64,000 nucleotides of DNA from a virus, in the IMG/VR virus record IMGVR_UViG_3300028610_001072, positions 37,524 to 101,523 of that record; one strand, written 5' to 3'. This document shows positions 5,083 through 62,964 of this stretch, piece after piece (the stretch's first letter is position 1; each line of letters begins with the position of its first letter). Below the pieces are notes generated by a model. It made no database searches. It was given only the letters and a program-made list of their open reading frames with translations, and was not told the origin of the DNA. A program made the translations under genes and the position numbers.

Positions 5083-5124
5083 TTGATTCTCCAGACGGTT
5101 GTTATTAAATCTGTTCTAACACCC

Positions 5125-5170
5125 TATACATCCAACATTCCCAGAGCCTACAAACGAGACTGTGTGAACG
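5125..5170 (-). promoter_or_regulatory. 46-bp promoter-like repeat, copy 1
   Basis: This is one of six dispersed copies. In minus orientation it reads TTCACACAGTCTC, then TTTGTAG, six or seven variable bases, then AATGTTGGATGTATAG. The TTGTAG and TATAGG hexamers lie 18 bases apart and could be the -35 and -10 of a weak sigma70-type promoter. The CACACAGTCTC block is extra and may bind an activator or a phage factor. The copy lies between the RHH gene and the 376-residue gene that starts at 5082. Confidence 0.65.
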
Positions 5171-5190
5171 AGAATTCCCATTATAGGGAG

Positions 5191-5440: not shown

Positions 5441-5468
5441 GCATTATTTTTATTTAATTTGATCCTCG

Positions 5469-37652: not shown

Positions 37653-39269
37653 CTAGGCAGTACCCTTATCCAGTATCGTTTTCACTGTATCATATTCGCG
37701 TGTGCGATATGCATTCTCCGCTGTTGACATTTCGGAAGTCGTGATCTTCCCCGCCTCATTGGCAGTAGTCAAGCTCTTGGTGAGCTCACCGAAGGTTTTC
37801 GGAATACCTTCAGGACGACCAGTGGATGCGGCATTGCCGTCACCGGCACCCTCTTCGCCTAAGCCGAATTGTGAAAGGTCAACTGGTCCACCGGGACGCG
37901 ATTTCAGGATGACCTGAAAAGCTGTGCCTATCGGGACTTTTTTGTCGCCCTCACCGATATAGAGTGATTTCTCGACTATATCAATTTTGGACGCCAAGGT
38001 TTCACGCATTACTTCTACCTCACCCAGAGCCTTTGCCATAGCCTGATCTCTTTCGTGATCATAGGCAACTTTCTGGGTCAGGAGATTGGCTACATCACCA
38101 ACGCTTTTCTGGATGTCCATCAGCATCGGTCCTGCATCCAAGTATTCTTCACCATCTCCGTCACCGGGGATGGTTACAATTTCGTCTGCTTCTTCAAGGC
38201 CGCCACCGTCACCGGCTGGAACGGACTTGAATATACGTTCCCTGATTTCTGACATATTGGTAACAAGGCTCTTCAGTAATGAAGTGGGGGTCTCCGGGCC
38301 ACCACCACCGCCATCGCCGCCGCCATCGCCGCCGCCATCGCCGCCGCCATCGCCGCCGCCATCGCCGCCGCCATCGCCGCCGCCCTCTTCGGGGAACAGG
38401 GATTTTGCGAGCCTGCCCGCAACTTCTTCGTCATGTCCTTCATCGACAAAATGTTGTTTGGCCTGTTCTTCGGTTTCAAAAGTCTTCATCGGTAAACTCC
38501 CGTTTTCAGATTTTTTGAGTTTGTTTTTCTTCCGTGTTTTATCCTTAGAACCGGCTGCCTTAATCTGCTCAGCGGTCTCTTTGATCTCGTCGTCGATATT
38601 TTCCTTGGTAATGGCATCCACTCCAGTTTTCGATGCAAGATCGGTACTGGTTGGTGTGGCCGTCATTGCCTTTTCGACTTCTTCCTTGTAACCCAAGGAT
38701 TTGGCAAATCGTGCATGGTTCTCCTGAAGTGCATGGAGATATACAGATTTATTCACTGGGCTGGGGGTGATTACTACATTGACCACTTTCGCTTTGCGAT
38801 AGCCGCCTTTTTCGACTTTGCCGTCGGTGTAATTGCCTTCAACAGACCAGCCCAAAGTTTTTTGATTGTTGGGAAATTGGCGATTGTGCGTCTCGATGTT
38901 CTGGATCAACTGCCATACATCGTTTGAATATTTTCCGTCCGCGAACAGTGCCCCTTTGATCAGCGTCCCGCCTTCAGGGGTGGTGGCTCGCTCATGGGGA
39001 CACCCAATAATATGAGCCGGGTCATTCGCAACATGCTCATATTTGATCCAGCCCTGATCATCGAAGTATGAGAAATCGAGCGATTTACTGATCAGCCTCT
39101 CTTTGTCCTCATCCTCATTGGAGTTGGTTATCTCTCCCCAGATCAGTCGCCGGGTGATCAGTTTACCGCTGTCATCCGCCACCTTTTCCTTGGCCGAATC
39201 TACGGACTTTTGGAGATTGATCATCCCGTGTAGTATGAAGTCAGGTTGCTGCTGTTGTTCATTACTCAT
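37653..39269 (-). CDS. Prohead protease-scaffold fusion
   Basis: From ATG 39269 this is 538 residues; a TTG at 39287 in the same frame is an alternative. The N-terminal ~200 residues look like a prohead serine protease: DQGWIKYEHVANDPAHIIG with H79, and QKTLGWSVEGNY with S142 in a G-x-S-x-EG motif. The rest is helical, acidic scaffold-like sequence with a (GGGD)6 linker at about 295-320 and over ten hydrophobic-x-K-S/A tetrapeptides (FAKSL, VEKAM, LLKSL, IQKSV, MAKAL, VEKSL). These may be self-cleavage sites. Protease plus scaffold before the capsid gene is a standard order. No Shine-Dalgarno is visible before ATG; a terminator-like hairpin ends three bases upstream. Confidence 0.82.
   Translation of the reverse strand: MSNEQQQQPDFILHGMINLQKSVDSAKEKVADDSGKLITRRLIWGEITNSNEDEDKERLISKSLDFSYFDDQGWIKYEHVANDPAHIIGCPHERATTPEGGTLIKGALFADGKYSNDVWQLIQNIETHNRQFPNNQKTLGWSVEGNYTDGKVEKGGYRKAKVVNVVITPSPVNKSVYLHALQENHARFAKSLGYKEEVEKAMTATPTSTDLASKTGVDAITKENIDDEIKETAEQIKAAGSKDKTRKKNKLKKSENGSLPMKTFETEEQAKQHFVDEGHDEEVAGRLAKSLFPEEGGGDGGGDGGGDGGGDGGGDGGGDGGGGGPETPTSLLKSLVTNMSEIRERIFKSVPAGDGGGLEEADEIVTIPGDGDGEEYLDAGPMLMDIQKSVGDVANLLTQKVAYDHERDQAMAKALGEVEVMRETLASKIDIVEKSLYIGEGDKKVPIGTAFQVILKSRPGGPVDLSQFGLGEEGAGDGNAASTGRPEGIPKTFGELTKSLTTANEAGKITTSEMSTAENAYRTREYDTVKTILDKGTA
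38310..38384. repeat. 12-bp tandem repeat encoding (GGGD)6
   Basis: The 12-base unit gccgccgccatc is repeated about six times in frame within the protease-scaffold gene and encodes Gly-Gly-Gly-Asp. It forms a flexible linker. Such a perfect nucleotide repeat can change copy number by slippage without breaking the frame. Confidence 0.9.
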
Positions 39270-39272
39270 GGT

Positions 39273-39307
39273 AAAAAAAATGCCCAATCCCCCTGTGGGA
39301 ACTGGGC
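39273..39307 (-). terminator. Terminator-like hairpin (possible attenuator) before the head operon
   Basis: On the minus strand GCCCAGTTCCC pairs with GGGGATTGGGC (11 pairs, two G-U) around ACAG, followed by A and eight T. This is a textbook intrinsic terminator. It ends only three bases before ATG 39269 and lies downstream of the candidate promoter at 39367-39395. Transcripts from that promoter would stop here unless antiterminated. Confidence 0.7.
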
Positions 39308-42230: not shown

Positions 42231-42257
42231 AGGTACTTCCTTTCTGTTATACGTTAC

Positions 42258-42303
42258 AATACACCCAATATTTTTATCCCTACAAATGAGACTACGTGAA
42301 TAT
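42258..42303 (-). promoter_or_regulatory. 46-bp promoter-like repeat, copy 2
   Basis: This is the most diverged copy (ATATTGGGTGTATTGT and TAGTCTCATTTGTAG in minus orientation). It lies between a terminator and the GHKL-HExxH gene, exactly where a promoter is needed. Confidence 0.6.
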
Positions 42304-42307
42304 CAGT

Positions 42308-44685: not shown

Positions 44686-44707
44686 TACCCCTTCCTTCCA
44701 CTTATAC

Positions 44708-44753
44708 TATACATCCAACATTTCAGTCCCTACAAATGAGACTGTGTGAATGT
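44708..44753 (-). promoter_or_regulatory. 46-bp promoter-like repeat, copy 3
   Basis: In minus orientation TTGTAG and TATAGT are 18 bases apart, the best -10 match of the six copies. The repeat overlaps the 3' end of the 44723-44983 gene and provides its stop codon. Confidence 0.65.
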
Positions 44754-46850: not shown

Positions 46851-46911
46851 TTCGCTATCTCCCTATGTGATTAGCATCGAGGGGGAAAACCTCTCCCCCT
46901 CTCACTAATAC

Positions 46912-46956
46912 TATACATCCAACATTTGAAAGCCTACAAACGAGACTGTGTGAACG
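46912..46956 (-). promoter_or_regulatory. 46-bp promoter-like repeat, copy 4
   Basis: In minus orientation CACACAGTCTCGTTTGTAG, then AATGTTGGATGTATAGTAT. TTGTAG and TATAGT hexamers at 18-base spacing. It precedes the small membrane peptide and the 46376-46657 gene. A GAGGGGG/CCCCCTC hairpin follows in the leader. Confidence 0.65.
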
Positions 46957-46974
46957 TAATAACGCTGACAGGGG

Positions 46975-49330: not shown

Positions 49331-49405
49331 GTGTGGTTTGTTGTACGGTCAGGATGACCGCATGGCAGACTCCTATGTTAGTTGCCGGTTTCTTCTCACA
49401 GATAC

Positions 49406-49450
49406 CATACATCCAACCTCTCAGCATCTACAAATGAGACTGTGTGAACG
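49406..49450 (-). promoter_or_regulatory. 46-bp promoter-like repeat, copy 5
   Basis: It shares about 60 bases of identity with copy 6, including an upstream GCGTACTGCCG and downstream TGTGAGAAGAAA. In minus orientation TTGTAG and TATGGT hexamers. It precedes element E1 and the zinc-ribbon gene. Confidence 0.65.
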
Positions 49451-49458
49451 GCAGTACG

Positions 49459-50217
49459 CTATCCGTAGGTGATTTCCCCCAGTACAGCTAGTTGCAGCCA
49501 TGCGTCGGCAGTGTTGGCATCCCAGTTTTCTGCCAGTAAATCATCCCAGTGATTTGGGCATTGTTTCTTCAGCAGATGGAAGCCCCGCTCGACTTCGGCC
49601 ATTGTCAGTAGATGCTTAGCGGCACCGTCTCCAGTGTCATCAACTTCTCGCAGTTCTATTTTGAAATCATCTCCATAGAATTTGCCATCCGAATACCACG
49701 GCTTTTCCATACCCTCGGTTGATGTAATAGCATCAGCACCTTCCAGCCAATGATTGCTCGCGCCCTCAAAGGCTGTCACAATCAGGTCCGCAATGGTCTG
49801 CGGGCTTTGCGGATCGTACTCCGGGTATTCCGGCGGTTTGATTGGTGCCGGGCCTGAAGACTTTTCCAGTTGAGTATAACTGCCGGTGATCGGTCTTAGG
49901 TTATCTTTCCGGTAACTATCTGGATCAGCGCCGGGTACTCCCCAACCGAACATTGAGCCGATTTCCATAGCCGTGGCCTGAAAAGCATCAACTCCTATTC
50001 GGTGATTGAATTTATCCGGGTCTGCGATAATCCCTTCCATCGGGACGTACCCCAATTCCCCCCGGATGATCAGGGTTGGCTTTCCATCCACATTATTCCG
50101 ATGAGCGCAGAGTGCTGGCAACTTCGTGAGGATGAAGTGATCTATCGACTTATGCTTGGCTACCTCTCTCCTGAGCTGGTCTCGCTCCCGTTCAACTTTT
50201 TCGTATGTCTCGGCCAT
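49459..50217 (-). CDS. Hypothetical phage protein
   Basis: From ATG 50217 this is a 252-residue protein. A helical N-terminus (YEKVERERDQLRREVAKHKS) is followed by an unknown domain (GELGYVPMEGIIADPDKFNH). The C-terminal part (TIADLIVTAFEGASNHWLEG, HLLTMAEVERGFHLLKKQCP, NTADAWLQLAVLGEITYG) resembles a widespread phage family that ends in DA-x3-LQ-x3-FG-x-I-x-YG. The role of that family is not known to me. It follows the 129-residue gene closely. Confidence 0.72.
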   Translation of the reverse strand: MAETYEKVERERDQLRREVAKHKSIDHFILTKLPALCAHRNNVDGKPTLIIRGELGYVPMEGIIADPDKFNHRIGVDAFQATAMEIGSMFGWGVPGADPDSYRKDNLRPITGSYTQLEKSSGPAPIKPPEYPEYDPQSPQTIADLIVTAFEGASNHWLEGADAITSTEGMEKPWYSDGKFYGDDFKIELREVDDTGDGAAKHLLTMAEVERGFHLLKKQCPNHWDDLLAENWDANTADAWLQLAVLGEITYG

Positions 50218-51402: not shown

Positions 51403-51434
51403 CTGTTCTCCTATGGTTTTCTTCTCACAAATAT

Positions 51435-51479
51435 CATACATCCAACATTTTTTTATCTACAAACGAGACTGAGTGAACG
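51435..51479 (-). promoter_or_regulatory. 46-bp promoter-like repeat, copy 6
   Basis: In minus orientation TTGTAG and TATGAT hexamers 18 bases apart, preceded by TTCACTCAGTCTC. It follows the terminator of the sigma-factor operon and starts the accessory operon. Confidence 0.65.
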
Positions 51480-51545
51480 GCAGTACGCTTTTAGGGGTAC
51501 AAATTGATCTTCTTTCGTAATCGGTGGGTCATTTGTGGGTACATG

Positions 51546-51578
51546 AAAAAGCCCCAGAGATGGGAGGCTCTGGGGCTT
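51546..51578 (-). terminator. Intrinsic terminator after the sigma-like gene
   Basis: AAGCCCCAGAG and CTCTGGGGCTT pair perfectly over an eight-base loop and are followed on the minus strand by a run of five T. It closes the 51.6-64 kb operon. Confidence 0.88.
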
Positions 51579-51622: not shown

Positions 51623-52945
51623 CTACAGGCGGATCGGGATGATCACCCTGATTGACTTCTGCACTAATGCTAGTGCTCGTTTCAAATTTTCTGGCGCACT
51701 GGCATGTTCTAATATCTTTTCGACTCCAGCCTGATAGGTTCGATAGACATCCATCTGGCCGGTGGCTTTTTCCTTGAATGGCGGCGTACCGATGATCCGC
51801 CATTTCTGCCCGCCACGCTCGACAATGAATGACTTCCCTGTCACGTTGACTATTTCAGCACGGATGGGATGCTTATAGCGTTCATTGACATAGGTGGTAT
51901 AGCGTTTCTTTTTAACAGTGCGCCGCCCCCGTTGATCCTTGCCCCGGACAACTCTCGTCACATCCTTGCGAACTTTCTTCATCGGCTTGAACCGGTGGAA
52001 ATCACCTACCGTCTTCCTGACCTTGATTTTTCTAATGCCGCGCTTTTGGTCGAGCAACTTTGCCACAGTCTCGAATGATCGCGGATTCATCCCCCGGCTG
52101 CTTTCCGGCTTATCCACATAGAACCTGAGATACAGGACATCCCGCTCATCCGGGGTCAAGGCTTTCTCTTTTACCAGACTGGTTATTACCCTGTGGGTGG
52201 TCTCCCTGAGTTCCCGCTCCTCAATAGTCCACTTGCTCCAGAAAGCCACATCCTCTTCTTCAATGTGGGGAGTGGTGTCCATGTCATCGGTTAGCTGAGC
52301 GCCTTTGTAACCTTCCAGTGCTTCTATTCGGACAAGTTTTTCTTCCGGGCTTAATTCTACATATTCGCCATCGCGGGTTCGCTTATGCAGGATCACCATG
52401 TCGGCAAGGTCTTCCCGGCTGGGCTTCTCCCCGTTATTGAGCTTCATATATTTTTCAGTGGCACTGGAGATGATTGCCAATTGCCTGATCATATCTCTGG
52501 GGAGCTGGACCCCGCTACCCCGGAGCTTCTTAGCCATGAGCCGCATCCGTTGCTTGGCTCTGGTCTTCATCTGCATAAATTTCAGATCGCCGGTTTTCTT
52601 CGACCTGATTGCTTCCATCCCGCCAATGAGCATTCCCTGCTTGCCCTCAGAGATCAGGTCCGCAACATCTCCCACCGGCTGACCATCGATGAACCTCACA
52701 TCCAGCCCATGCACTCGAGCGATCTCTTTCCCCATGTAAACCAGATAGGCGATATTCTTTTGAATAATCCGCCCCAGTTCCTGCATCTGTGGCATGGTGG
52801 CTTTTAGCCGCATTTTCGGTGTTTTCCGGGCCTGTTTTGGTTTGCCGGTACGAATGTGTGCAGCAACCGGTTTCCCGCTCCTGACGTGCGCCCTGACGTG
52901 CTCAGGCTGGGCTTTTAGGAGTGTGGGGAGTTTAACGCGCTGCAT
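51623..52945 (-). CDS. Sigma70-like transcription factor with virion-type linker
   Basis: This 440-residue protein has sigma-factor features. DVADLISEGKQGMLIGGMEA (93-112) matches region 2.1/2.2, followed by a basic region (TRAKQRMRLMAKKLRG) and GVQLPRDMIRQLAIISSATE with NNGEKPSREDLADM (171-183), like regions 3.0/3.1. KALTPDERDVLYLRFYVDK (261-279) and a helix-turn-helix-like segment near 286-320 match region 4. The N-terminus (LLKAQPEHVRAHVRSGKPVA) and C-terminus (LALVQKSIRVIIPIRL) carry the linker and K-S/A patterns of the polyvalent proteins upstream, so it may be packaged and injected. It may direct host RNA polymerase to phage promoters such as the 46-bp repeats. The sigma call is good but distant. 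Confidence 0.75.
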   Translation of the reverse strand: MQRVKLPTLLKAQPEHVRAHVRSGKPVAAHIRTGKPKQARKTPKMRLKATMPQMQELGRIIQKNIAYLVYMGKEIARVHGLDVRFIDGQPVGDVADLISEGKQGMLIGGMEAIRSKKTGDLKFMQMKTRAKQRMRLMAKKLRGSGVQLPRDMIRQLAIISSATEKYMKLNNGEKPSREDLADMVILHKRTRDGEYVELSPEEKLVRIEALEGYKGAQLTDDMDTTPHIEEEDVAFWSKWTIEERELRETTHRVITSLVKEKALTPDERDVLYLRFYVDKPESSRGMNPRSFETVAKLLDQKRGIRKIKVRKTVGDFHRFKPMKKVRKDVTRVVRGKDQRGRRTVKKKRYTTYVNERYKHPIRAEIVNVTGKSFIVERGGQKWRIIGTPPFKEKATGQMDVYRTYQAGVEKILEHASAPENLKRALALVQKSIRVIIPIRL

Positions 52946-53159
52946 TATTTTTCTTTCTGACCTTCCGTGGCATTTTCACCGCTGGCATTTCCAATTCGGT
53001 CTTGCAATGCGAGCACATGCAAATTACAGCTCCGTTGACCTGATTGATAGTCATCGACTTAACCCGGTAGAACATTCGTTGGGGGTCCTTCGCGTCGGGC
53101 TTGGCAATCTTCAACGTGCAGGTAGGGCATCTACCGTCGGCTGTAAGTTTAACCGCCAT
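52932..53159 (-). CDS. Zinc-ribbon protein
   Basis: From ATG 53159 (AAGGG upstream) this is a 75-residue basic protein with CPTC and CSHC pairs about 36 residues apart (RCPTCTLKIAK, VICMCSHCKTELEMP), a probable zinc ribbon. It overlaps the previous gene by 11 bases and the sigma-like gene by 14. A nucleic-acid or RNA-polymerase-binding accessory of the sigma factor is possible. Confidence 0.75.
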   Translation of the reverse strand: MAVKLTADGRCPTCTLKIAKPDAKDPQRMFYRVKSMTINQVNGAVICMCSHCKTELEMPAVKMPRKVRKKNNAAR

Positions 53160-53451
53160 CCTGCCCTTCATTCTCAATTAATGCAGTATTCAGCTCCGCT
53201 GCATGGTGAAACATCTTCCGCCCACTCACAGCACCGGCGTATTCTTTTTGGAGCTTCTTATTCTCCGGGTTCTTTTCAAGTTGTTTCCCCAGAGTTACCG
53301 CCGCCCGTGCGGTCTGGTCATGTTTGCTGATGGCCTCTCCCCTGAGAGTCTTTAGGTCCTGTATGGCTTCGCTGCGCACTGTATCGCAGGTCTCCATCCG
53401 CTTGAGCAGTTTCGAGGTCATGGTTTTTTGCAGTTTCTCAGGCTTGGACAT
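53149..53451 (-). CDS. Small helical protein
   Basis: This 100-residue protein is almost wholly helical and charged (KLQKTMTSKLLKRMETCDTV, LGKQLEKNPENKKLQKEYAG). TAGGAGA precedes ATG, which overlaps the SNF2 gene by 14 bases. It might form a coiled coil. Unknown function. Confidence 0.7.
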   Translation of the reverse strand: MSKPEKLQKTMTSKLLKRMETCDTVRSEAIQDLKTLRGEAISKHDQTARAAVTLGKQLEKNPENKKLQKEYAGAVSGRKMFHHAAELNTALIENEGQDGG

Positions 53452-56400
53452 GAATTCTCCTATTTATCATAATTCGGGGGGACATCGATTTGGCTACTGG
53501 TTGGGATGCTGCTGCAACTTTCTGCTTCAGGACATTCATATCATCCAACTTCGATCCTTCATGCAGCATATTCATTACCGCTTTCTTTTCGCTTAACCGC
53601 TCCTCGGTAGCCATATCGTGCGGCGTATCGGTTAAGATTATGTGGCCGTGGACATCCTTATTCGCTCCCTTGCGATAGCCGCGACTGAAAAACTGATCCA
53701 TTGTTGACCAGCTGTGAGCACCGGACCCCATCGCTATTGCGGTTGTGGCTCCGTATGGGCGATCCGCTTCCCCAGTGTGCTGGAGATTTAATCCCTCAGT
53801 ACCGGCATCGGTATGGATCGCAAATAATACTTTGGGGTCTTTCAGGTAGGTTTCTTTAGCCTTGGCAATAGCTGCTTGACTTATGGCACGGCCATTCTTA
53901 TCCTGCCCGGCGAATCGCACCATCTTCTTACCCGGGTAGTTCGCCCGGATAAATTTCTCAATCTCATTCACCGTGCTGTAATTTTTCGCATACATCAAGA
54001 CCTTTTCCGTCGCTGCCTTGGTGGCAATATGATCATCGATGATCGATTTCATCTGGGCATATTTAGGATTAGTCTTGTGATCGGAGTCATTCAGAATCCG
54101 GCTGATGTGCTGGTCCCGGCTCATGGGATTGATCCGTCCCTTCAGGTATTTCTTCTGGATTTTCTGATAGTCGGCTTTCTGCTTTGGGGACAGCTCGGCG
54201 GTGTGGGTATTCATATGGAAGTTTGATCCTTCAACCTTTTTCTTTACGGTGAATATCCGGTCATCCAGCTCGGCATTCAGGATGTCTTGTAATTTCTCTT
54301 TCAGACCAGCTCCCTTGTGGAGATTTCGGTACTTCTCCATGAAGGCTTTTTTATTACCATATTTTTCCGGGTCCATGATATTCAGATGGAAATATAGCTC
54401 GCTCAGGTCGTTGGGAGTGGGGGTCCCGGACCCCGTTACATAGTACGGTACTTCCTTGGCGATCTTCGCTAACCCACGGCTCATTTGACTGCCAGTTTCG
54501 GGACCTTTAGTTCCGGCAACATCCCGTTGGGTGATCTTATGCCCCTCATCAGCCACCACCATATCGAAGCCAGCGTCTTTAACCAGATCGTGATCGAAGT
54601 AGAATTTTTCCTTATTCACCAGCACAATATAAGAGGGGTCCGCCTTGTAGGCTTCGGCGCGTTTCGATTTATCGGCGTAATCTACTTGCACCACTTTATA
54701 ATCGGAAAACTTCTCCACTTCCTCAGCGAAATTGGGCATCAACTTTTTAGGCATGGCAATAACTGTTTTCACCGGTTTACCGGTGGTCTCTTCAAGGTGT
54801 GCTTTCTGAAGGAGATACGCCAGCGATTTCCCGGTTCCCGCCTCGAAATTCAAATAGACCTTTTTCTGGAGTCCGATAAATCGGGCGGCGGCCTGTTGCT
54901 CGGGTGTCGGTATGATCTTGGTCATGGTGCCATCGGCATTTTCGATATAGGGCTTGATGCCGGTGGGTAGCCAGTCCTGCTCATTTTCACGGAGACTCTT
55001 AATGCTCTGGGGACTCGGCTCCCTTCCTAGTTCCTTGAATTGAGCCACGACTTTTTCATTGATTAGTTTTTCGTATGCCTTCGCTTTGATGATCATCGTA
55101 TAATCGCCGTGGCCGTGGCGCTCGATGTTGACATCACCCTTATTTAATCCCAGTTTATCGATCTTGGCATTTAATGCCTGTCGATTCGAGCTCTTGATTG
55201 TCAGGTCCTTTTTGTGGCTCTGAAATTGGTACAGGAGCTCGGCGGCCATGTGCAGACCACCTTCGGCTTGACCATACGCGAGGTATGCCCGATTTACATA
55301 AGCCAGCTTGGCGGCTGATCCCTGCTGACGGGTAGCGAATAGCATATCCTTGCCCTTGGCAAATTTCGTGACGTGCTGCGCTCGCTCGAGATACTTATCA
55401 CCTTTATTGACGGCATCGAGGGCAATCTCATTACCCTTGTCCTCAATGTATTTCTGATAGCGGCCAACCGATCCGGCGTAATCCTCTTCCCCTAGAGTAT
55501 TCCGTAGATAGTAGTCTGCCAGTATGGCGGCGTTAGCTGCGCCAAGTTCATTCATAAAGTCTTCATTGATGATACTGGTGCCAGCCATTTCGCCGGTGAT
55601 GCCGTTGATGGCTTCGATTGATCCCTGAGCGATCATCTTATCCATATCCTTCCGCTCAGCACCTTTGCTCTCAATTTCCTTACCATTCTGATCGATCCCG
55701 CCACGGGTGTTGACAATCAGGGTATAGTGAGCGGCAATCTCATCCCGCAATGCTTTCTCATCCTCGACCATCCGCATTAGGTCCGCACTGGTAATATCAG
55801 AGACTCCTACAATGTCTGAGCCAGCGTGTGTTACCATGCCGGTACGGAGCTGCTTATTAATGACCTTCAACTCCCGCTCATGCCCCTTGATGGCATAATG
55901 GGCTTTCAGGAATTCTTCTGCATTCTCCCGGATCACCTGAGCAATACGTTTCTTCTCGGCATCGTGCTGGTCATCGATACCAACCTCATCCCCCAACATG
56001 ACCTTTTTGGCATCCTCGATGATGCTATTCAATGCCCGGCGGCGTTCATTGGCAATCTTGTTGATTTCCTTCAGTCGCTCCCCCCGCTGCTCGGGCTTGG
56101 ACATCTTCTCAATTCTTTTCTCGATGGCCGCCCGTTCCTTGGCAGTGACTTCAGTTTCGACGCCAGCTTTTTCCCGAACCATTTCATGTAGTTTCCCCTT
56201 GGCCTCAGTGCGCTTCGCACCTACCTCTTCCTTGCGAGTTGCGAGTTTTTCAACATCTTCTTCGGCCATCTCTTCCCGGCGTTTCGCACGGGCGTCTTCC
56301 TTCGCCTGTTTGGATTTTTCCCGTGCCAGCTTGGCCTCTTCGGTGTCAGCCTCTTTTTTCTTCGGCTGTAGGATTTTGTGGGTGAGACCTGATTGCTCTG

Positions 56401-57145
56401 GTGCCCAGACTATTGAGGCGGTCCCGTTGGCATGAGGCATTATCAGGATATGGCGGCCATGTAGAGGACTGCTGGCATCCGTGATCGTAACCCAGCGAGC
56501 ACCGGGATGCTGGCGCATGATATTTGCACTCCAGCTCTTTTCCATCTCCTGCGGATTTCCGTGCCGCCCAGCTTTTACCCTGTATTTCTTTTTCGATTTG
56601 GGATGCGTGAGATAGAACTCACCCCCCTTACAAGTATGATCCTTGTGCATCGAATAGTAGCAGCCCTTCCGCATAATCGATGATCCCCGAGCCACCAATA
56701 GAGGGCCGACTTTATTGAGATTGAGGTTTGCTGTTCTGCCCTTTTGTAGATCGGGGACCATTGAGATCGACTTCCCAAAATTCTTTAGTTTCTCCTGATA
56801 GATACCGGCGGCTTTCTTCCAGAATGCCTTATACTCATCCTTGGCCCATTTCGGAGCCATGGCACTGTCATATACTGACCACTGCTGCATCGACTGTTCG
56901 CTACCGTTCATGTGTGGCTTCAGCCAGATAAACGATGATCCCACCATCTTGGCGCTCTGCTGGGCCAGTGCCAATTTCTTCTGCAACTCCTGCTTGGTTT
57001 CACAGGCATTCGCCCATTTGCGGTGAGCACTGATACCGGTATTCATGGCCGCCTGTCGGACCTGTTGCGCTGCCCGGTTATAGGATGATACCCGGATCAT
57101 CAATCCTGATCTCAGCTTACGTGCATGTCCTTTGACTTGACTCAT
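53438..57145 (-). CDS. SNF2-family helicase-like polyvalent protein
   Basis: This 1235-residue protein has three parts. Residues 1-270 are basic and include KGCYYSMHKDHTCKGGEFYL and SPLHGRHILIMPHANG. Residues ~275-740 are long, charged helices and coiled coils. From ~745 it is an SNF2 superfamily 2 translocase: Walker A EAGTGKS (K773), DEGH (866-869), VTGSGTPTPNDLSEL (motif III), HTDAGTEGLNLQHTG and QFFSRGYRKG (motifs V/VI). The C-terminus has PVAKSMSPRIMINRR. SNF2 engines move along DNA and remodel protein-DNA complexes; in phages such large proteins can be injected to counter host defence, as DarB of P1 is. Located between ParB-like and sigma-like genes, overlapping the former by ATGA. Confidence 0.88.
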   Translation of the reverse strand: MSQVKGHARKLRSGLMIRVSSYNRAAQQVRQAAMNTGISAHRKWANACETKQELQKKLALAQQSAKMVGSSFIWLKPHMNGSEQSMQQWSVYDSAMAPKWAKDEYKAFWKKAAGIYQEKLKNFGKSISMVPDLQKGRTANLNLNKVGPLLVARGSSIMRKGCYYSMHKDHTCKGGEFYLTHPKSKKKYRVKAGRHGNPQEMEKSWSANIMRQHPGARWVTITDASSPLHGRHILIMPHANGTASIVWAPEQSGLTHKILQPKKKEADTEEAKLAREKSKQAKEDARAKRREEMAEEDVEKLATRKEEVGAKRTEAKGKLHEMVREKAGVETEVTAKERAAIEKRIEKMSKPEQRGERLKEINKIANERRRALNSIIEDAKKVMLGDEVGIDDQHDAEKKRIAQVIRENAEEFLKAHYAIKGHERELKVINKQLRTGMVTHAGSDIVGVSDITSADLMRMVEDEKALRDEIAAHYTLIVNTRGGIDQNGKEIESKGAERKDMDKMIAQGSIEAINGITGEMAGTSIINEDFMNELGAANAAILADYYLRNTLGEEDYAGSVGRYQKYIEDKGNEIALDAVNKGDKYLERAQHVTKFAKGKDMLFATRQQGSAAKLAYVNRAYLAYGQAEGGLHMAAELLYQFQSHKKDLTIKSSNRQALNAKIDKLGLNKGDVNIERHGHGDYTMIIKAKAYEKLINEKVVAQFKELGREPSPQSIKSLRENEQDWLPTGIKPYIENADGTMTKIIPTPEQQAAARFIGLQKKVYLNFEAGTGKSLAYLLQKAHLEETTGKPVKTVIAMPKKLMPNFAEEVEKFSDYKVVQVDYADKSKRAEAYKADPSYIVLVNKEKFYFDHDLVKDAGFDMVVADEGHKITQRDVAGTKGPETGSQMSRGLAKIAKEVPYYVTGSGTPTPNDLSELYFHLNIMDPEKYGNKKAFMEKYRNLHKGAGLKEKLQDILNAELDDRIFTVKKKVEGSNFHMNTHTAELSPKQKADYQKIQKKYLKGRINPMSRDQHISRILNDSDHKTNPKYAQMKSIIDDHIATKAATEKVLMYAKNYSTVNEIEKFIRANYPGKKMVRFAGQDKNGRAISQAAIAKAKETYLKDPKVLFAIHTDAGTEGLNLQHTGEADRPYGATTAIAMGSGAHSWSTMDQFFSRGYRKGANKDVHGHIILTDTPHDMATEERLSEKKAVMNMLHEGSKLDDMNVLKQKVAAASQPVAKSMSPRIMINRRIHVQA

Positions 57146-58305
57146 GCTGCGGCTCCAACTTTAATTATGGTCTCCAATGATTTGCGAGCTTTCCGGCGGC
57201 GGCGTTTCCCCTTAATCCCCTTGGCATTCAGGTAGCCGTCAATGGTGCCGCCACTCTCGAAAAACTTCTGAGCGAATTGCATTTCCCGGTCCAGTTTCTT
57301 CATCTCTTCATTGATGAGAGCCACCTTGCGGGCAGTGACGGCCAGCTTGCCTTTTTCCTTCGCTAGTGCAGGAATGATCTTCGCGCCGTTCTTTTCGCTT
57401 ACTCGATCCATTAGGCTTCCGAAGTCATCCAGTAATTTCCCAAGGTCGCGCTCCAGTGAATTCCTGCGCTGCTTTGTGATCCGCTGGCCGATGGTGTTAC
57501 CCTCGATGCTAAATAGCCCGGTCTGGGTCTGTGAACTTTGATAGCGGCCAACCATCCCCCGTAACGCTTCAGTGGAGATTTTTCCCATATTCAGCCGCTT
57601 GATAATATTCTGCTGGTAAGCTGGTTTAAGGTTTGCGGTGGATATGATTTCCGCCCGGCGTACTGTCATTGAGCCATGCCTCACCATCTCCTGCAACTGG
57701 GGGATCAGGCTCAGGAATGATATGCGCCGCTCAACCGTCACTTTGGATGTGCCAACCGCCTCAGCTATATCGTCCGCCGTTGCGCCGGTGTCAACCAACT
57801 TTTGATAGGCTGTGGCCTCTTCCATCGGATTCATTTCCTCACGGCCAACATTCTCCGCCACCTGAATCTCAGCAATTTCTTTCTCGTCGGTAATGTGATA
57901 AACCTTCGCATTGGCGATTTCAACCCCTGCGATCTGCATGGCTCTCCAGCGCCGCTCCCCTGCGATCAGCATGTAGTCGCCTTTAAGGTCCGGGTGTGGC
58001 CGGATTACAATATCCTGTAGTAGTCCTATTTTTTTAATACTGGCGGCCAGCTCCTTCAATTTGCCTTCATCGAAGTGCTCCCGTGGCTGGGTAGGATCGC
58101 GGTGGATCGCGCCAACCGGCACCTGAGCCTTACTGGTTTTCGCCTCGACCTTGACAAGCTGCTTCCCGCCGAAAAGGTCCTCTGGATATTCGTACTGGTA
58201 ATGGCCGGGCGCACCGATTCGCTTGGTGTATTTATGACCGGGCTTCATTGTGCCGGTAGCACTCTTCCTGAGTCTCGACTTGATTAAGATTTGAACGCCT
58301 TCCAT
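57142..58305 (-). CDS. ParB-like DNA-binding protein
   Basis: This 387-residue protein has a ParB/Srx N-terminal domain with the PTQPREHF box (71-78), GERRWRA (116-122) and ENVGREEMNPMEEA (151-164), the motifs that bind CTP in ParB. These are followed by a helix-turn-helix (ATADDIAEAVGTSKVTVERR) and a long helical C-terminus. The N-terminal 45 residues (LIKSRLRKSATGTMKPGHKY, then RIGAPGHYQYEYPEDLFGG) form a linker found on phage polyvalent proteins, with a K-S site. In phages ParB-like proteins may act in DNA segregation, gene regulation or anti-restriction. AAGGAA precedes ATG; there is a 22-base overlap with the upstream gene. Confidence 0.88.
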   Translation of the reverse strand: MEGVQILIKSRLRKSATGTMKPGHKYTKRIGAPGHYQYEYPEDLFGGKQLVKVEAKTSKAQVPVGAIHRDPTQPREHFDEGKLKELAASIKKIGLLQDIVIRPHPDLKGDYMLIAGERRWRAMQIAGVEIANAKVYHITDEKEIAEIQVAENVGREEMNPMEEATAYQKLVDTGATADDIAEAVGTSKVTVERRISFLSLIPQLQEMVRHGSMTVRRAEIISTANLKPAYQQNIIKRLNMGKISTEALRGMVGRYQSSQTQTGLFSIEGNTIGQRITKQRRNSLERDLGKLLDDFGSLMDRVSEKNGAKIIPALAKEKGKLAVTARKVALINEEMKKLDREMQFAQKFFESGGTIDGYLNAKGIKGKRRRRKARKSLETIIKVGAAA

Positions 58306-58571
58306 AATTCCTTCAGTATATATCCCAGTCCTGTTAATGCCAGCAGCGCAGTGCCGCTATCTTTTGCCATATTCGTAACTACTTGCGTAACCGTCTTGAC
58401 TTCATCGGCGGCCACATGAATTGCATCCGGCATAAATACTCTGACCGTGATAATCGCGCCTGCCAACATAACCCCAACGGTTATATGTTGCCGGTGTTTC
58501 TTGATAGCAGCCAGCTTTGCAGCCTCTCGTTTTTTAGCCCGCTCACGCTTGGCTTTGGTTGACAATTTCAT
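58284..58571 (-). CDS. Small membrane protein
   Basis: This 95-residue protein has a very basic N-terminus (KLSTKAKRERAKKREAAKLA), then a membrane span (HITVGVMLAGAIITVRVFM) and a second weak one (SGTALLALTGLGYILKELW). It could sit in the inner membrane. It overlaps both neighbours. A DNA-entry or superinfection role is possible but not shown. Confidence 0.7.
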   Translation of the reverse strand: MKLSTKAKRERAKKREAAKLAAIKKHRQHITVGVMLAGAIITVRVFMPDAIHVAADEVKTVTQVVTNMAKDSGTALLALTGLGYILKELWKAFKS

Positions 58572-60274
58572 CGTGCGCCTGCTTTGGTCCTGCCCATAAT
58601 TATTATGGATTTCTGGACTCCGGTATAGGTCATACCCCGAGCACTGTAATAGCCCTGCCCTGTCTCGAATACTGCATCGAGTAACTGGTATCCTGATGGT
58701 TTGAAATATTTCTCAGCCGTTTCTCGATAGGCGTGTGCATCTCGGGCGCTGGGATGTGATCCCACCGTGATGCAATTCACGGACCCTGTATCGAGCATGT
58801 GCTTCATTAGGGCCTTGCTGTACTTCGTCTGGGTGGCACTGAGATTCAGGTGATTATCTCCCAGTAGAAAAAATCCCGTGACATTATTCTGCCCGTTTAG
58901 GGTGATCCCCCAGACCCCCTTCCCATGCTCGGCTTGTATCCATTTCCCTAACCGAGCAGCGTCTTGGGCTGAAGTGACCGCCATATCTGGCATACCTGAA
59001 GGAGCTGATTCTCGGCTTGTCACCTTGATTTCGGAAATGGGATGCTCAACCCAGCTACGTTTTTGCGTTGGGACGTAATCGTCTTTAGCCCTGTCAATGT
59101 ATGGCTCAAATGTGGTGAAGGTTAGCTTGCCACCATGAATGATAACATCGCCCTGATGTTCAATCCCGAATTTCTTGGCGAAGGCTTTTATCCTGTCAGT
59201 GATGGCATAGTCGTCCCGTGAGGGATTAGGGCTGCCTGATGGGTGATTGTGAATTCCCCAATACTTCTTTGCCTTATTGGCTCTCAATACGCTGAGGATC
59301 ACCCGTGGATCAACTGTTGAATCGGTTATGCCGCCCATGCTATGCAGTTCGACTGATATGAGTTTATCATCCTTATCCGTGCCAACTACCCAGTATTTTT
59401 CCCGTGCGTCATCCCGCATACTTTTAAATATCGCGGCTATATCTCCAGCCTTCGTGATCTTGGTTCCCGGTACTTTAATTGACCCGGTTGGCATGGCTCC
59501 GACTTTTACGAAGGACATTCCCTTGATTTTACGGGACTTACCTTTTTTGGTCCGGCTGTCCTGATGCTCACGGACAGTTGTAATCTTACCAGATTTCGTG
59601 TGCCGGAGATGGGTTTTAATCTTGGCCTTGATCATCTGGGGCTTATTCGCCGTCGCCAGTACCTTCGGCTTGAACTTATCGAAGGTCATGGTGGTGCAGC
59701 TCATAAACATATCGCGGCGGTCATAATTCTTTAGATAATCCTCAATGGCCTGCTCTCTCGATCTCCAGCCCAACATGCACTTGTCTTCATCATACTTGCC
59801 GGTTTTCACATTCCTTTGATGGATCACGTACACCTTTGGAGCATTCGGCTCGGGACCCATAAAGCAGTCTACATGATCTTTATCAACTCCAGTAGTCCCC
59901 CGGATGTAGCCATAATCGAAATGGAGCAGGCTTCGCCATTCGTTCCCGTCGGGGTCTTTCCCAGTTCGATAGGTCCCGGCGGGATTCTCTATGGAAATTT
60001 TCAGACCCCTGAAAGTCAGACGTTTGCGGATAGGATGCCCGCTCCATGTTTTCGACTTCAGTAAAATTTGGGGGATAGGCGGAATACGGTTATCACCCCG
60101 CACCCCGTCCCTATCCCCTCCGCCCTTGGAAGCACTCACACTCAAAGCTTTTTCCAGTTGTCCAGATATAATCAGATCATGGACATCCGGCACTCCAGCT
60201 AAGGGGACGCCTAAATAGACATCCCCCTCTGCACTCAGGCAGAACCGGTCGCCGTTTGGGGTAGAATTATTCAC
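58568..60274 (-). CDS. Inorganic pyrophosphatase-like plus JAB/RadC polyvalent protein
   Basis: This 568-residue protein, GTG start, is modular. Residues ~75-215 (GLKISIENPAGTYRTGKDPD, HFDYGYIRGTTGVDKDHVDC, then KCMLGWRSREQAIEDYLKNYD) match the pyrophosphatase-like domain seen in polyvalent proteins. Residues ~270-390 are a RadC/JAB domain with HNHPSGSPNPSRDD (about 341-354), the JAMM metal motif. Residues ~455-565 look like a second JAB-like unit with GSHPSARD and no first histidine. Between them is the linker KTHLRHTKSGKITTVREHQ. Several K-S/A sites occur (LLKSK, IFKSM, VQKSI). It overlaps the 896-residue gene as TAGTG. Likely delivered with the genome; exact substrate unknown. Confidence 0.82.
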   Translation of the reverse strand: MNNSTPNGDRFCLSAEGDVYLGVPLAGVPDVHDLIISGQLEKALSVSASKGGGDRDGVRGDNRIPPIPQILLKSKTWSGHPIRKRLTFRGLKISIENPAGTYRTGKDPDGNEWRSLLHFDYGYIRGTTGVDKDHVDCFMGPEPNAPKVYVIHQRNVKTGKYDEDKCMLGWRSREQAIEDYLKNYDRRDMFMSCTTMTFDKFKPKVLATANKPQMIKAKIKTHLRHTKSGKITTVREHQDSRTKKGKSRKIKGMSFVKVGAMPTGSIKVPGTKITKAGDIAAIFKSMRDDAREKYWVVGTDKDDKLISVELHSMGGITDSTVDPRVILSVLRANKAKKYWGIHNHPSGSPNPSRDDYAITDRIKAFAKKFGIEHQGDVIIHGGKLTFTTFEPYIDRAKDDYVPTQKRSWVEHPISEIKVTSRESAPSGMPDMAVTSAQDAARLGKWIQAEHGKGVWGITLNGQNNVTGFFLLGDNHLNLSATQTKYSKALMKHMLDTGSVNCITVGSHPSARDAHAYRETAEKYFKPSGYQLLDAVFETGQGYYSARGMTYTGVQKSIIIMGRTKAGAR

Positions 60275-62964
60275 TACAGCCCGTACTCATGGAGATCATA
60301 CTCCGACAGTTTGTACTTCTTTTTCGGGTCCAGATTCCGGGCGATCCTATCCAGCTTCTCGATCCTCTGGCGTAGGTTGCGAAGCCTGTACGGCTCTACG
60401 GGTGGCTTCGCGTCTGTCTCCACAGATGCCGCCATGTCGGGTGCCATTTCATTATTATCGGTTGGCGTCGGCTTTAGCCCGGCCCGCCATTCAGCTAACC
60501 CTCGCAGGAGATCGCCCTGACATTCACCAATTTTGCAGCGTGTGGCAAATATAATATCCTTCCCGCTCTTCGTGAATTCGAGAGACTTGGAAAGCTTGCC
60601 AACCTCGACCGCTTTTTGAAGGACTGGATATTGATTCATGTCGATGGATTTCTTTGCGGGCTGTTTCCGAGCGGCTTCAATCATAGCTGCTTCTTTGGCG
60701 GCAGCCCTTTCAGGATTCTTTTTTCGATCTGCCTTGGTCGGGAGACCTGCATCGGCCCTATGCCCCTCCCATTTGCTTTCATGGTGAGCCGACCTTTCAT
60801 AGTGATGTTCATATTTGGATGAACCTTTTTTATGCCTTTTTAGCCGCTCGTCGTGATGCTCCATTCTGGCTTTATGGTGCTCAGCCATCTCTACAAAATG
60901 ATGTGTCCCCCCGTATTGATGGGCTGACACGAATCCACGCTGACCCGGTTTCCGAGTCTTTTGATGTTCCCGGACGGTTGTAATCGTTCCTGATTTGGTC
61001 CGGCGCTGATGTTGCTTGACTGTCCCGACTGCTTTTTGCAGTAGGGGGTATTTATCGAGATCATTCATTGTTCCGCTCTCCATTGATTTCTTAGCTGATG
61101 TGTATGCCGCTCTGAATTCCTTGAGTCCAAGATAGCCCTCTGTTTGTGCTGGAGTTAAGCCAAATTCTTCCCCCTTCTTATGGAGATTGGTGAGCGTATC
61201 CGCAGCACCTTTTTTGTTACCAGCCTTGAATTGCTGGATGTACTCATTGGCCCATTTTCGCATTCCTACCCTATCCTCGAGGGGGATTTTATTTTCCTGT
61301 CCTCGGTGCTGGGTTTGATGTTCCCGGACGGTTGTGATCTTCCCTGATTTGGTCCGGCGTTGATGCTGCTTGACCGTGCCGACTGCCTTTGCCAGCAGGG
61401 GGTAATTTTCGAGGCCATTCATATCTGACTCCATTGACTTCGTGAATCGGGGTGTGCCATGCTTCTTTTTTAGCAGCTCGAATGCCAGATCGGATACCTT
61501 ATAGATATTGAATCCATCGCCGGTTGTATCGGTTTTTTTAATACCCCGGCCTTTCAATTCGATATTGGTCGTGAGATAAATCGATCCATAATGACCGTAT
61601 TCATAGTCCCATACTCCGGGACGATCACCGGTGTACTTTTTCTTGTATTCGGATTCCATGTTATCAATTCTGGTCTGGAGTAGTTTTCTCTTCCCAGATT
61701 CTTTATCACCGATCCGGTTCCGTTTTTCCTTCAGGCTATTGATAGCCTTTCTGGCTGTGAGCTGCTGGGCAGCTTTTTGGGATTCAGCGTGACCAATATC
61801 CGCTTTTTCTCGGGCTGTTATTAGCGCCTTATCTTTGCGCCGTTGCTCGTCATGGGTTAAGGATTCTCCCGTATTATTATACTGAAATTCCCCGTGCTGC
61901 TGCTGTATCTTTTTAAGTGCTGCCTCGGTGACACTATAGGTTTTCAGCCCGAGCCGGTGATCACTGCCATCCCCTGACTGTCTGATTCCCCGCCCTTTAA
62001 GGTCCAAGTGTGTTGTGACGTAGTAGTCTCCCCCGTGGGATACTTTATATTCCCGGACCTGTGCCGGTTTCCCTGTGAATGGCTTCAAGTCGGATTCCTT
62101 GGGCAGTGCTTCTCTCAGAAAGTGGCTCCGTTGATTAACATAGTGCTTCGCCTCAGCGTTGGTCATCTTGCCGGTGTATTTGAAATGATCTATTATTTCG
62201 GCGTCTGATGAGCTCTCGTCATTGGATAGGACGGACGCAATCCATTGACGTTTCAGGCCATCTTTTTGCTTCTTAGTCCGGCTATCGGTGTGCTCCCGGA
62301 CAGTGCCAGTTTTACCGCTTTTGTAATGACGGATGTGCGCTACAACCTTGCCCTTCCGCAATAACATCATTGCTTTGCCCATAGTCCCCAGACTGGTAGC
62401 CATTCCGGTGTGCATCTCAATGACATCCGTGAGCATATCGTTATAGATACCCTTGGCGTCAGTGACCTTTTTGTACGTTGGTCCTTTGGTGATCCGTCCA
62501 AATTCCACATCGTAGGTATCCACCGCATTTAGGGTGATCCTGATCATGTGGATGCTGCTGGAGTTCCGGCCAATCCTGAATTGGAGATAGGCATCGCCGT
62601 TCTCATGGGTCCCGGCTCCGTAGCCTTTGGCACCGATCATGTACAGGGCTTGCCTACCAATTTGCTTCTGGATAGTGTGAGCCACAGCCAGCGCATATTT
62701 ATTATCGGCGGCTCGCCTCTTCTGGCGGCTGTCTTCATGCTCCCTGACATTGACCACCTTACCCGCTTGGCGGCGCTGGTGAGCCTTAACATGAGCTTTG
62801 AGTAATATGGGTTGCATGGCTTTCTTCCCCTTCATCTGTTGGTAGATGCCCATCGTGTAAGCATAGAATTCGTCGGAGCCTTCGGATTTCGTTTTCCGGG
62901 CAATTCCCTTCGCCTTATTCCACAGGTGCTCATCACGTTCGTTTTTGACGACGTTGGTTGGCAT
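60274..62964 (-). CDS. Modular repeat protein, polyvalent protein-like
   Basis: This 896-residue basic protein is built of modules joined by four copies of an H-x-R...GK...VREH linker (near 57-80, 210-230, 530-550 and 650-670). Two copies share longer repeats with YPLLAKAVGTVKQHQRRTKS and YPLLQKAVGTVKQHQRRTKS. Two related domains contain DYYVTTHLDLKGRGI (about 310-350) and SIYLTTNIELKGRGI (about 455-495). The N-terminus (ERDEHLWNKAKGIARKTKS, EFYAYTMGIYQQMKG) resembles MuF-associated polyvalent proteins. A His-rich region (about 690-750) follows, and the last ~90 residues are acidic then basic. It may be a polyprotein cut by the head protease. No enzyme motif is visible. Confidence 0.75.
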   Translation of the reverse strand: MPTNVVKNERDEHLWNKAKGIARKTKSEGSDEFYAYTMGIYQQMKGKKAMQPILLKAHVKAHQRRQAGKVVNVREHEDSRQKRRAADNKYALAVAHTIQKQIGRQALYMIGAKGYGAGTHENGDAYLQFRIGRNSSSIHMIRITLNAVDTYDVEFGRITKGPTYKKVTDAKGIYNDMLTDVIEMHTGMATSLGTMGKAMMLLRKGKVVAHIRHYKSGKTGTVREHTDSRTKKQKDGLKRQWIASVLSNDESSSDAEIIDHFKYTGKMTNAEAKHYVNQRSHFLREALPKESDLKPFTGKPAQVREYKVSHGGDYYVTTHLDLKGRGIRQSGDGSDHRLGLKTYSVTEAALKKIQQQHGEFQYNNTGESLTHDEQRRKDKALITAREKADIGHAESQKAAQQLTARKAINSLKEKRNRIGDKESGKRKLLQTRIDNMESEYKKKYTGDRPGVWDYEYGHYGSIYLTTNIELKGRGIKKTDTTGDGFNIYKVSDLAFELLKKKHGTPRFTKSMESDMNGLENYPLLAKAVGTVKQHQRRTKSGKITTVREHQTQHRGQENKIPLEDRVGMRKWANEYIQQFKAGNKKGAADTLTNLHKKGEEFGLTPAQTEGYLGLKEFRAAYTSAKKSMESGTMNDLDKYPLLQKAVGTVKQHQRRTKSGTITTVREHQKTRKPGQRGFVSAHQYGGTHHFVEMAEHHKARMEHHDERLKRHKKGSSKYEHHYERSAHHESKWEGHRADAGLPTKADRKKNPERAAAKEAAMIEAARKQPAKKSIDMNQYPVLQKAVEVGKLSKSLEFTKSGKDIIFATRCKIGECQGDLLRGLAEWRAGLKPTPTDNNEMAPDMAASVETDAKPPVEPYRLRNLRQRIEKLDRIARNLDPKKKYKLSEYDLHEYGL

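What the first reader, a model, noticed from the sequence alone, without database searches (positions are those of the whole stretch)
51623..52945. A distant sigma70-like factor that may be packaged
Regions resembling sigma 2, 3 and 4 are visible, but the protein also has a basic linker N-terminus and a K-S site at each end like the neighbouring polyvalent proteins. It is the last gene of that operon, next to a zinc-ribbon gene. A virion-carried sigma factor would let the phage reprogram host RNA polymerase immediately on entry. I know virion RNA polymerases (N4, phiKZ-like) but no well-described virion sigma factor.
Basis: partly seen in the sequence, partly recalled or inferred. Interest (0 to 1): 0.8.

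Follow-up and report, generated by a model that had tools for sequence, protein, structure and literature searches.

The report
Divergent phage sigma factor, possibly packaged
This uncultured phage carries, in an operon of proteins thought to travel inside its particle, a very distant relative of the bacterial sigma factor that tells RNA polymerase where to start, and related phages share a matching promoter-like DNA signal; packaging and promoter use still need a bench test.

Summary
The 440-aa ORF at 51623-52945 (-) is real and the sigma reading holds: the 13 best of 102 Foldseek hits of its (modest) model are all sigma factors, though none reaches E 0.001. Sigma-2 and sigma-3 are supported, sigma-4 only weakly. 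The core-binding motif is kept; the residues that open the -10 element in E. coli sigma70 are not. I found homologues in two other IMG/VR contigs (69%, 37%), in the same gene order.

Packaging is inferred. The gene ends a run of overlapping genes for polyvalent proteins downstream of portal and MuF-like genes, and it belongs to a nine-protein head/polyvalent set enriched in [LVIM]xK[SA], a candidate head-protease site, with one near each end (K-A, K-S). A strict linker profile did not match it.

The six copies precede genes without structural matches, with sigma70-like spacing and a GATGTATA resembling the element of phage phiEco32's sigma. It is a candidate cognate promoter. One relative also has it before its polyvalent operon, so a late-sigma role stays open.

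The parts
51623..52945 (-). sigma70-like gene, 440 aa
   Evidence: ORF; homologues L005:14273-15571 and L007:9956-11194; fold
52811..52915 (-). N-terminal basic linker (residues 11-45) with the K11-A12 candidate processing site and two VxxHxR units
   Evidence: alignment of 3 homologues; loose motif count; strict linker HMM negative
52514..52798 (-). sigma region 2 (residues 50-144), core-binding signature DLISEGKQG at residues 96-104
   Evidence: VIA 4ljz_F residues 369-447, 79 aligned, rmsd 2.5, Z 6.9; hhalign
52352..52513 (-). sigma region 3 (residues 145-198)
   Evidence: VIA 1rp3_E sigma28, model 48-228, Z 10.3; hhalign to residue 184
51986..52168 (-). candidate sigma region 4 (residues 260-320)
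   Evidence: sub-threshold Pfam Sigma70_r4; not recovered by fold
51626..51985 (-). C-terminal extension (residues 321-440): predicted beta-rich part, then two helices, K430-S431 near the end; fold not identified
51549..51578 (-). terminator-like hairpin (11 pairs, T-run) just after the sigma-like gene
   Evidence: scan total not above shuffles
52932..53177 (-). small zinc-ribbon-like gene, overlaps the start of the sigma-like gene
   Evidence: same place in L005 and L007
53149..53451 (-). 100-aa gene of the same run
53438..57145 (-). SNF2-type helicase of polyvalent kind, 1235 aa
   Evidence: Pfam SNF2-rel_dom E 6.3e-13; phrog_62 E 2.8e-40
57142..58305 (-). ParB-like protein
   Evidence: Pfam ParB_N E 4.2e-22
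58568..60274 (-). InPase-RadC polyvalent protein
   Evidence: Pfam InPase E 6.1e-42, RadC E 6.6e-25
60274..62964 (-). 896-aa protein with repeated VKxHxR linkers
51431..51447 (-). promoter-like core, inside repeat copy 51418-51489
49402..49418 (-). promoter-like core, inside repeat copy 49389-49460
46908..46924 (-). promoter-like core, exact consensus, inside repeat copy 46895-46966
44704..44720 (-). promoter-like core, exact consensus, inside repeat copy 44691-44762
42254..42270 (-). weak copy of the promoter-like core before the GHKL-type ATPase gene 40773-42230, inside repeat copy 42241-42312
   Evidence: found only by the profile or matrix that includes own sites
5121..5137 (-). promoter-like core before gene 3952-5082, which is followed by the SbcCD-like gene 418-3939
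   Evidence: 11.0 bits in the independent matrix, within the control range
39282..39307 (-). terminator-like hairpin (11 pairs, T-run) between the motif block and the head-protease gene
   Evidence: scan total not above shuffles
37653..39287 (-). head maturation protease, with 13 [LVIM]xK[SA] sites
   Evidence: phrog_1028 E 1.9e-20

Best explanation
It is a highly diverged sigma70-like initiation factor (sigma-2 and sigma-3 fold, probable degenerate sigma-4, own C-terminal extension), made in the late head operon together with polyvalent proteins, probably processed by the head protease at K-[SA] sites and packaged, and ejected with the DNA. In the cell it would bind host core RNA polymerase through the kept region 2.2 surface and direct it to the TGTTGGATGTATAGTAT-type promoters. 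Shown by computation: fold of regions 2-3, gene order, K-[SA] enrichment, conserved DNA element. Inferred: packaging, core binding, and that this protein reads that element.
For: Fold: the 13 best PDB matches are all sigma factors, prob 0.87-1.00, next hit prob 0.10; VIA Z 10.3 to sigma28 over 149 residues, and rmsd 2.5 over 79 residues to E. coli sigma70 region 2. Sequence: hhalign to E. coli RpoD/RpoS/FliA E 1.8e-4 over residues 59-184, unrelated control E 0.58; N64, D96, E100, G101, G104 align to E. coli N383, D403, E407, G408, G411 (numbered by me). No other sigma found in the record by Pfam r2 or r4. Packaging: overlapping genes from ParB to sigma, downstream of portal and MuF-like genes, same order in L005 and L007; [LVIM]xK[SA] 44 observed against 16.2 expected in 9 head/polyvalent proteins, 36 against 39.4 in 92 other genes, and near both ends in 4 of 9 against 0 of 92. 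Promoter: a matrix from 6 sites of related contigs gives 26-41 bits to 4 of the 6 own sites, control maximum 11.6; 18 nt between a phage-specific box and TATAGT, counted by me; GATGTATA, compared with tAATGTAtA and start sites 6-8 bp downstream for phi32_gp36 (PMC8948821, passages). Sigma-2 is the best-kept part (92% and 51%) and candidate sigma-4 less so (70% and 31%), as the core element is kept and the upstream box is not.
Against: I have no virion proteomics. The model is modest (pLDDT 57.1, pTM 0.35), no Foldseek E reaches 0.001, and the aligner warns that helical models can reach Z of about 13 without kinship. Pfam r2 has no match, r4 is below cut-off in 1 of 3 members; with two phage sigmas added the hhalign E is 0.097, with FliA alone 0.19. 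Sigma-4 is not recovered by fold. The aromatic residues at E. coli Y430 and W433-W434 are not kept. The neighbours' linker profile misses it. The K-[SA] pattern was chosen after reading the proteins, and the sigma-like protein is in the set tested. The terminator-like hairpins come from scans that find no more than shuffles. In the L007 phage one element stands before the polyvalent operon itself, which fits a late factor. The link of element and protein rests on co-occurrence in three contig sets, of which L005 and L039 are joined only by inference.
Confidence: 0.42

Rival explanations
1. It is a divergent phage sigma factor made during infection and not packaged: it sits in the late operon and drives the motif promoters as a middle, late or delayed factor, like phi32_gp36 or SaPh711_gp47.
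For: phi32_gp36 is the product of a middle gene and SaPh711_gp47 serves late promoters (PMC8948821, passages). In the L007 phage one motif site precedes the polyvalent operon that holds its sigma gene, an autoregulatory layout. The protein is not itself multi-domain in the polyvalent sense and the linker profile misses it.
Against: It lies in a run of genes of the kind predicted to be injected and has candidate processing sites near both ends, as MuF-like, protease and InPase-RadC proteins do. In the window phage none of the 6 motif sites directly precedes a portal, protease or capsid gene, and a terminator-like hairpin stands between the block and the protease gene.
Confidence: 0.35
2. It is a packaged sigma-fold protein that no longer initiates transcription: it binds core polymerase (or DNA) and blocks or retunes host transcription, as an anti-host factor.
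For: Core-binding signature kept while the -10 melting aromatics are missing in the 3 homologues and sigma-4 is weak.
Against: A conserved promoter-like element with sigma70-like spacing co-occurs with it; FliA also lacks the tryptophan pair at that place in the alignment and is an active sigma factor (recalled).
Confidence: 0.13
3. The repeats are host-sigma70 or repressor-operator sites that have nothing to do with this protein (compatible with any reading of the protein itself).
For: TATAGT resembles a -10 hexamer; the upstream box differs between phages, as operators or host-adapted -35 boxes could.
Against: The 9 nt upstream of TATAGT (TGTTGGATG) are shared across phages whose sigma-like proteins are 37-69% identical; the sigma70 consensus scans, which covered 5 of the 6 sites, list none of these on the genes' strand.
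Confidence: 0.3

Closest known systems
sigma28/FliA and other sigma70-family factors (1rp3, E. coli RpoD)
   Same: Predicted sigma-2 and sigma-3 folds in order; region 2.2 motif DLxxEGxxG; a region 3 stretch NGEKPSREDLADM against MGREPTPEELAERM
   Different: Sequence below Pfam cut-offs; about 12 extra residues before region 2.2; Y430/W433/W434 equivalents lost; weak region 4; basic N-terminal linker and 120-residue C-terminal extension
phi32_gp36 of phage phiEco32 and SaPh711_gp47 of phage 7-11 (phage sigma factors on host core)
   Same: Phage-encoded sigma for host core with phage-specific promoters; the phi32_gp36 element tAATGTAtA resembles GATGTATA here (PMC8948821, passages)
   Different: phi32_gp36 is a 214-aa protein without useful similarity to this one and comes from a middle gene; in SU10 its identical counterpart was seen with one peptide in PEG-precipitated, not gradient-purified phage (PMC4281155, passages)
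Virion RNA polymerases of N4-like and phiKZ-like phages
   Same: A transcription component carried in the particle to start early genes (PMC5512222 section 18; PMC13282480 passages)
   Different: Those are whole polymerases; here only the specificity factor would travel and host core would be used
Polyvalent proteins (Iyer et al. 2017)
   Same: Run of genes with ParB, InPase, RadC and SNF2 domains near late virion genes
   Different: The sigma-like protein has no disparate second activity that I could find; 'sigma' occurs 0 times in the main text of that paper

Membership tests
sigma70 family | sigma-2 and sigma-3 domain folds in sequence order | tested here: met
   Foldseek ranks 1-13 all sigma factors; VIA Z 10.3 to 1rp3_E over model 48-228; model confidence is modest
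sigma70 family | region 2.2 core-binding signature | tested here: met
   DLISEGKQG aligns to DLIQEGNIG of RpoD; D, E, G, G kept in 3 of 3 homologues
sigma70 family | sigma-4 helix-turn-helix | tested here: inconclusive
   Pfam r4 below cut-off in 1 of 3; no sigma row in the fold search of residues 225-440
sigma70 family | Pfam Sigma70_r2 or r4 above curated cut-off (a detection limit rather than a definition) | tested here: not met
   r2 no match, r4 16.3-18.3 bits against 24.1
sigma70 family | region 2.3 aromatics for -10 melting (a group 1 feature, recalled; not general to the family) | tested here: not met
   Y430 aligns to M126, W433 to a gap, W434 to R129
sigma70 family | binds core polymerase and directs initiation | not testable with these tools
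   needs purified protein
polyvalent (injected) phage proteins | gene near late virion genes | tested here: met
   portal and MuF-like genes upstream, head protease and major capsid genes downstream beyond the motif block
polyvalent (injected) phage proteins | 2 to 15 domains of disparate activity in one protein | tested here: not met
   only sigma-like domains and an unidentified C-terminal part
polyvalent (injected) phage proteins | carried in the virion | not testable with these tools
   I know of no proteomics for this uncultured phage
phi32_gp36-type phage sigma factors | sequence similarity to phi32_gp36 | tested here: inconclusive
   hhalign aligns 12 columns only, E 0.045

The most novel reading that the evidence does not exclude
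A virion-carried sigma factor: the phage packages a head-protease-trimmed sigma70-fold protein with its genome and, on entry, turns host core polymerase to its own TGTTGGATGTATAGTAT promoters without first needing host sigma70, a third solution beside virion RNA polymerases and phage sigma factors made in the cell.
Probability: 0.38. Interest if true: 0.88.

Novelty: new variant of a known kind. Interest (0 to 1): 0.7.

Why it matters
Phages are known to carry whole RNA polymerases or to make sigma factors after entry. A packaged specificity factor would be an intermediate strategy, and the pairing proposed here (one protein, one conserved DNA element, named coordinates) makes it directly testable. 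The protein would also be a natural case of a sigma-like factor without the usual -10 melting aromatics.

Tried and rejected
Sequence searches that did not help: PHROGs, no family for this protein; PDB by single sequence, 0 rows, and by the three-row profile, three unrelated rows at E 0.33 to 1.9; phages by tblastn, no match, and for the L007 homologue one chance row at E 8; IMG/VR patterns from the single protein, none. Genome contigs: 135 and 77 pattern stretches, none confirmed as a relative of the sigma-like protein or the helicase. A further IMG/VR scan for ADLxxEGxxGM returned 34 stretches; by hmmsearch and tblastn only the two known contigs hold a homologue.

Linker: a profile of ten linker instances from neighbours (one of them, in the L005 helicase, a poor choice) was searched against 140 own genes, two homologues and 200 shuffles; none of the three sigma-like proteins is among the rows printed (the list was cut at 40), while some shuffles are. 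A tblastn of the linker peptide in phages found nothing.

The motif pattern in IMG/VR gave 27 stretches; only two (L012, on the L007 contig, and L015) match the extended element with E below 1e-3, the other 25 look like chance.

5' hairpins after the element: of 12 leaders folded, three have z of -2.9 or lower, so this is not general; those shuffles kept single-base composition only.

The 12-column match to residues 11-22 of phi32_gp36 was judged chance. Cultured distant relatives PHB04 and phiMa: a gene shortly after their helicase looks like the head protease by eye; of 7 genes tested there none matches the sigma profile (best E 0.19) and none is named a sigma factor by Pfam. Sigma-4 and the C-terminal part: the fold searches gave no sigma row among those shown and only weak unrelated ones; this does not exclude a sigma-4.

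Full report
What is there. The window is the last 64,000 bases of a 101,523-base virus record. The first and last 144 bases of the record are identical, so the map looks complete and circular, and I read genes across that join. PHROG matches to terminase small subunit, portal, minor head protein, head maturation protease, major head protein and tail sheath make it a contractile-tailed phage; 'MuF-like' for the minor head protein is my label. By a simple ORF caller 122 of 140 genes lie on the minus strand.

Is it a sigma factor? By sequence alone it is at the edge. Pfam gives only Sigma70_r4, 16.3 bits against a cut-off of 24.1, at residues 262-299, in 1 of 3 homologues. Sigma70_r2 gives no match in the record. 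With a three-sequence alignment (A2), AlphaFold2 gave a modest model, pLDDT 57.1 and pTM 0.35. Even so, the 13 best of 102 Foldseek matches in the PDB are all sigma factors (sigma70, sigmaA, sigmaS, sigma28, WhiG), prob 0.87 to 1.00, E 0.003 to 0.078; rank 14 is unrelated with prob 0.10; none passes E 0.001. VIA-align gives Z 10.3 to sigma28 over 149 residues (model 48-228), and 79 residues at 2.5 A (Z 6.9) to E. coli sigma70 369-447; by title 49 of the 50 listed rows are sigma factors or chains of RNA-polymerase complexes, and the tool warns that helical models can reach Z of about 13 without kinship. In BFVD, ranks 4, 5 and 6 are named phage sigma factors, rank 1 a 'DNA binding protein' of a Streptomyces phage; again none passes E 0.001. 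A profile comparison with E. coli RpoD, RpoS and FliA aligns residues 59-184 with E 1.8e-4; with two cyanophage sigmas added the same region aligns but E is 0.097, with FliA alone 0.19, and the unrelated helicase alignment gives 0.58.

Which parts are kept. On the alignment (E. coli numbers counted by me), DLISEGKQG (96-104) lies on the DLIQEGNIG core-binding segment and N64 on N383. M126 lies on Y430, a gap on W433 and R129 on W434, and QMKTRA is invariant in the three homologues. So the polymerase-contacting surface looks kept and the usual -10 melting residues are gone; the roles of those E. coli residues are recalled, not from a call. Identity to the two homologues falls along the protein: region 2, 92% and 51%; region 3, 80% and 41%; candidate region 4, 70% and 31%; C-terminal part, 52% and 22%. 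Folding residues 225-440 alone (pLDDT 60.8) did not give a sigma-4 match.

Relatives. I found homologues in two IMG/VR contigs only: L005 (69%) and L007 (37%), none in 50,697 phage records and none in genome contigs by the patterns tried. The order helicase, zinc-ribbon-like gene, sigma-like gene is the same in all three, with ParB, InPase, MuF-like and portal genes upstream. Two further contigs (L008, L010) hold the helicase but end before the place of the sigma-like gene.

Is it packaged? For: it is the last of a run of overlapping genes from ParB on, downstream of portal and MuF-like genes. Its neighbours carry InPase, RadC, ParB and SNF2 domains, the kind that Iyer et al. 2017 predict to be injected and find near virion genes (PMC5512222, sections 14, 18 and 32 read). 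The record has a head maturation protease (phrog_1028). The pattern [LVIM]xK[SA] occurs 44 times against 16.2 expected in nine head and polyvalent proteins and 36 times against 39.4 in the 92 other minus-strand genes of 100 aa or more (Fisher p 3.5e-12); it lies within 45 residues of both ends in 4 of 9 (MuF-like, protease, sigma-like, InPase-RadC) and in 0 of 92. The protease protein alone has 13. That fits protease sites, though I chose the pattern after reading the proteins and the sigma-like protein is one of the nine. The C-terminal K-S is kept in 2 of 3 homologues. Against: a loose VxxHxR pattern occurs in four genes of the polyvalent/sigma run but also in three other genes, and the strict linker profile misses the sigma-like N terminus. 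I have no virion data.

A candidate promoter. A profile built on these five finds one more, six in the whole record. The core TGTTGGATGTATARTAT has 5 matches with up to 3 mismatches in the window against 0.33 expected. In L007 it is present with 2 mismatches 95 bases after the sigma-like gene and exactly 2.3 kb after it. It is also exact in L015/L039, a contig from the same metagenome as L005 with 44-80% identical proteins in the same order as the window; L005 itself ends 57 bases after its sigma-like gene and shows no copy. A matrix made only from the six sites of those other contigs scores four own sites at 26.2 to 40.7 bits; the fifth gets 11.0, within the range of the reversed control (maximum 11.6), and the sixth is not among the 16 rows listed in its register. 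Upstream of the TATAGT hexamer, 18 nt away by my count, lies a box that differs between the phages: TTGTAG here, CTGTAC in L039, ATACAT or ATTCAT in L007. Just downstream GTGA stands in 9 of the 12 copies. The phiEco32 sigma uses tAATGTAtA with start sites 6-8 bp downstream (PMC8948821, passages), close to GATGTATA here.

What it would control. Five sites lie in the block 51.45-39.3 kb and precede small genes and a GHKL-type ATPase gene (HATPase_c_3 E 4.1e-5, just below cut-off). The sixth, at 5121, precedes a gene of unknown function followed by an SbcCD-like gene. Ten genes of these parts were scanned and none matches a structural family, though several match nothing. Eleven-pair terminator-like hairpins lie on both sides of the block, at 51578-51549 and 39307-39282, but the scans as a whole find no more than shuffles do (22 against 23.0; 7 against 8.3), so they rest on stem length and place. 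The GHKL gene is preceded by a (weak, 4-mismatch) copy in L007 too. No site directly precedes the portal, protease or capsid gene of this phage. In the L007 phage, however, one site (L040:10677) stands between the MuF-like gene and the polyvalent operon, so that phage may use it to express the sigma-like gene itself. I therefore keep a late or autoregulated sigma as a serious rival.

Prior work. In my searches I found no paper on a virion-carried sigma factor: 'virion sigma factor' 0 papers; six similar phrases gave 11 papers, of which the 10 listed concern viruses of animals, or a virology meeting, by title and abstract start, and one was not listed; further listings showed none by title. 'sigma' occurs 0 times in the main text of the polyvalent-protein paper. 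The nearest hint is phage SU10, whose sigma factor was seen with one peptide in PEG-precipitated phage that the authors say was not gradient-purified (PMC4281155, passages). In cyanophage PSS2 the paper's table lists 0 peptides for both sigma factors (PMC2784084, passages). Most subscription papers and all bioRxiv preprints are outside that library.

Verdict. Sigma70-like fold: likely (about 0.85). Cognate element: about even. Packaged: about even to slightly likely. The whole chain, packaged sigma acting on entry, about 0.4.

Noticed in passing
window 63857-64000 and record 1-144: Identical 144-base ends of the record: the genome looks complete, about 101.4 kb unique.
   Followed up: partly
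window 40773-42230: GHKL-type ATPase gene directly after a weak motif copy; its orthologue in L007 also follows a weak copy.
   Followed up: partly
window 45000-46001 and 47617-48591: Two PAPS-reductase-like genes (phrog_424) in the motif block.
   Followed up: no
L007:54-5789 and L041:3355-8835: In relatives the ParB-like part is fused into proteins of 1826-1928 aa, while it stands alone in the window (387 aa): polyvalent proteins split and fuse between related phages.
   Followed up: no
window about 38308-38382: Tandem 12-base repeats code for a GGD run inside the head-protease protein.
   Followed up: no
window 46908 downstream, L007 11289 and 15245 downstream: Leader hairpins just after three motif copies (z -2.9 to -4.0); most other leaders show none as strong.
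   Followed up: partly
L086 (PHB04) 4957-5628: A protein beside the capsid gene of a cultured distant relative, scaffold-like by eye, also has many K-[SA] pairs, so the proposed cleavage pattern may be wider; not counted.
   Followed up: no
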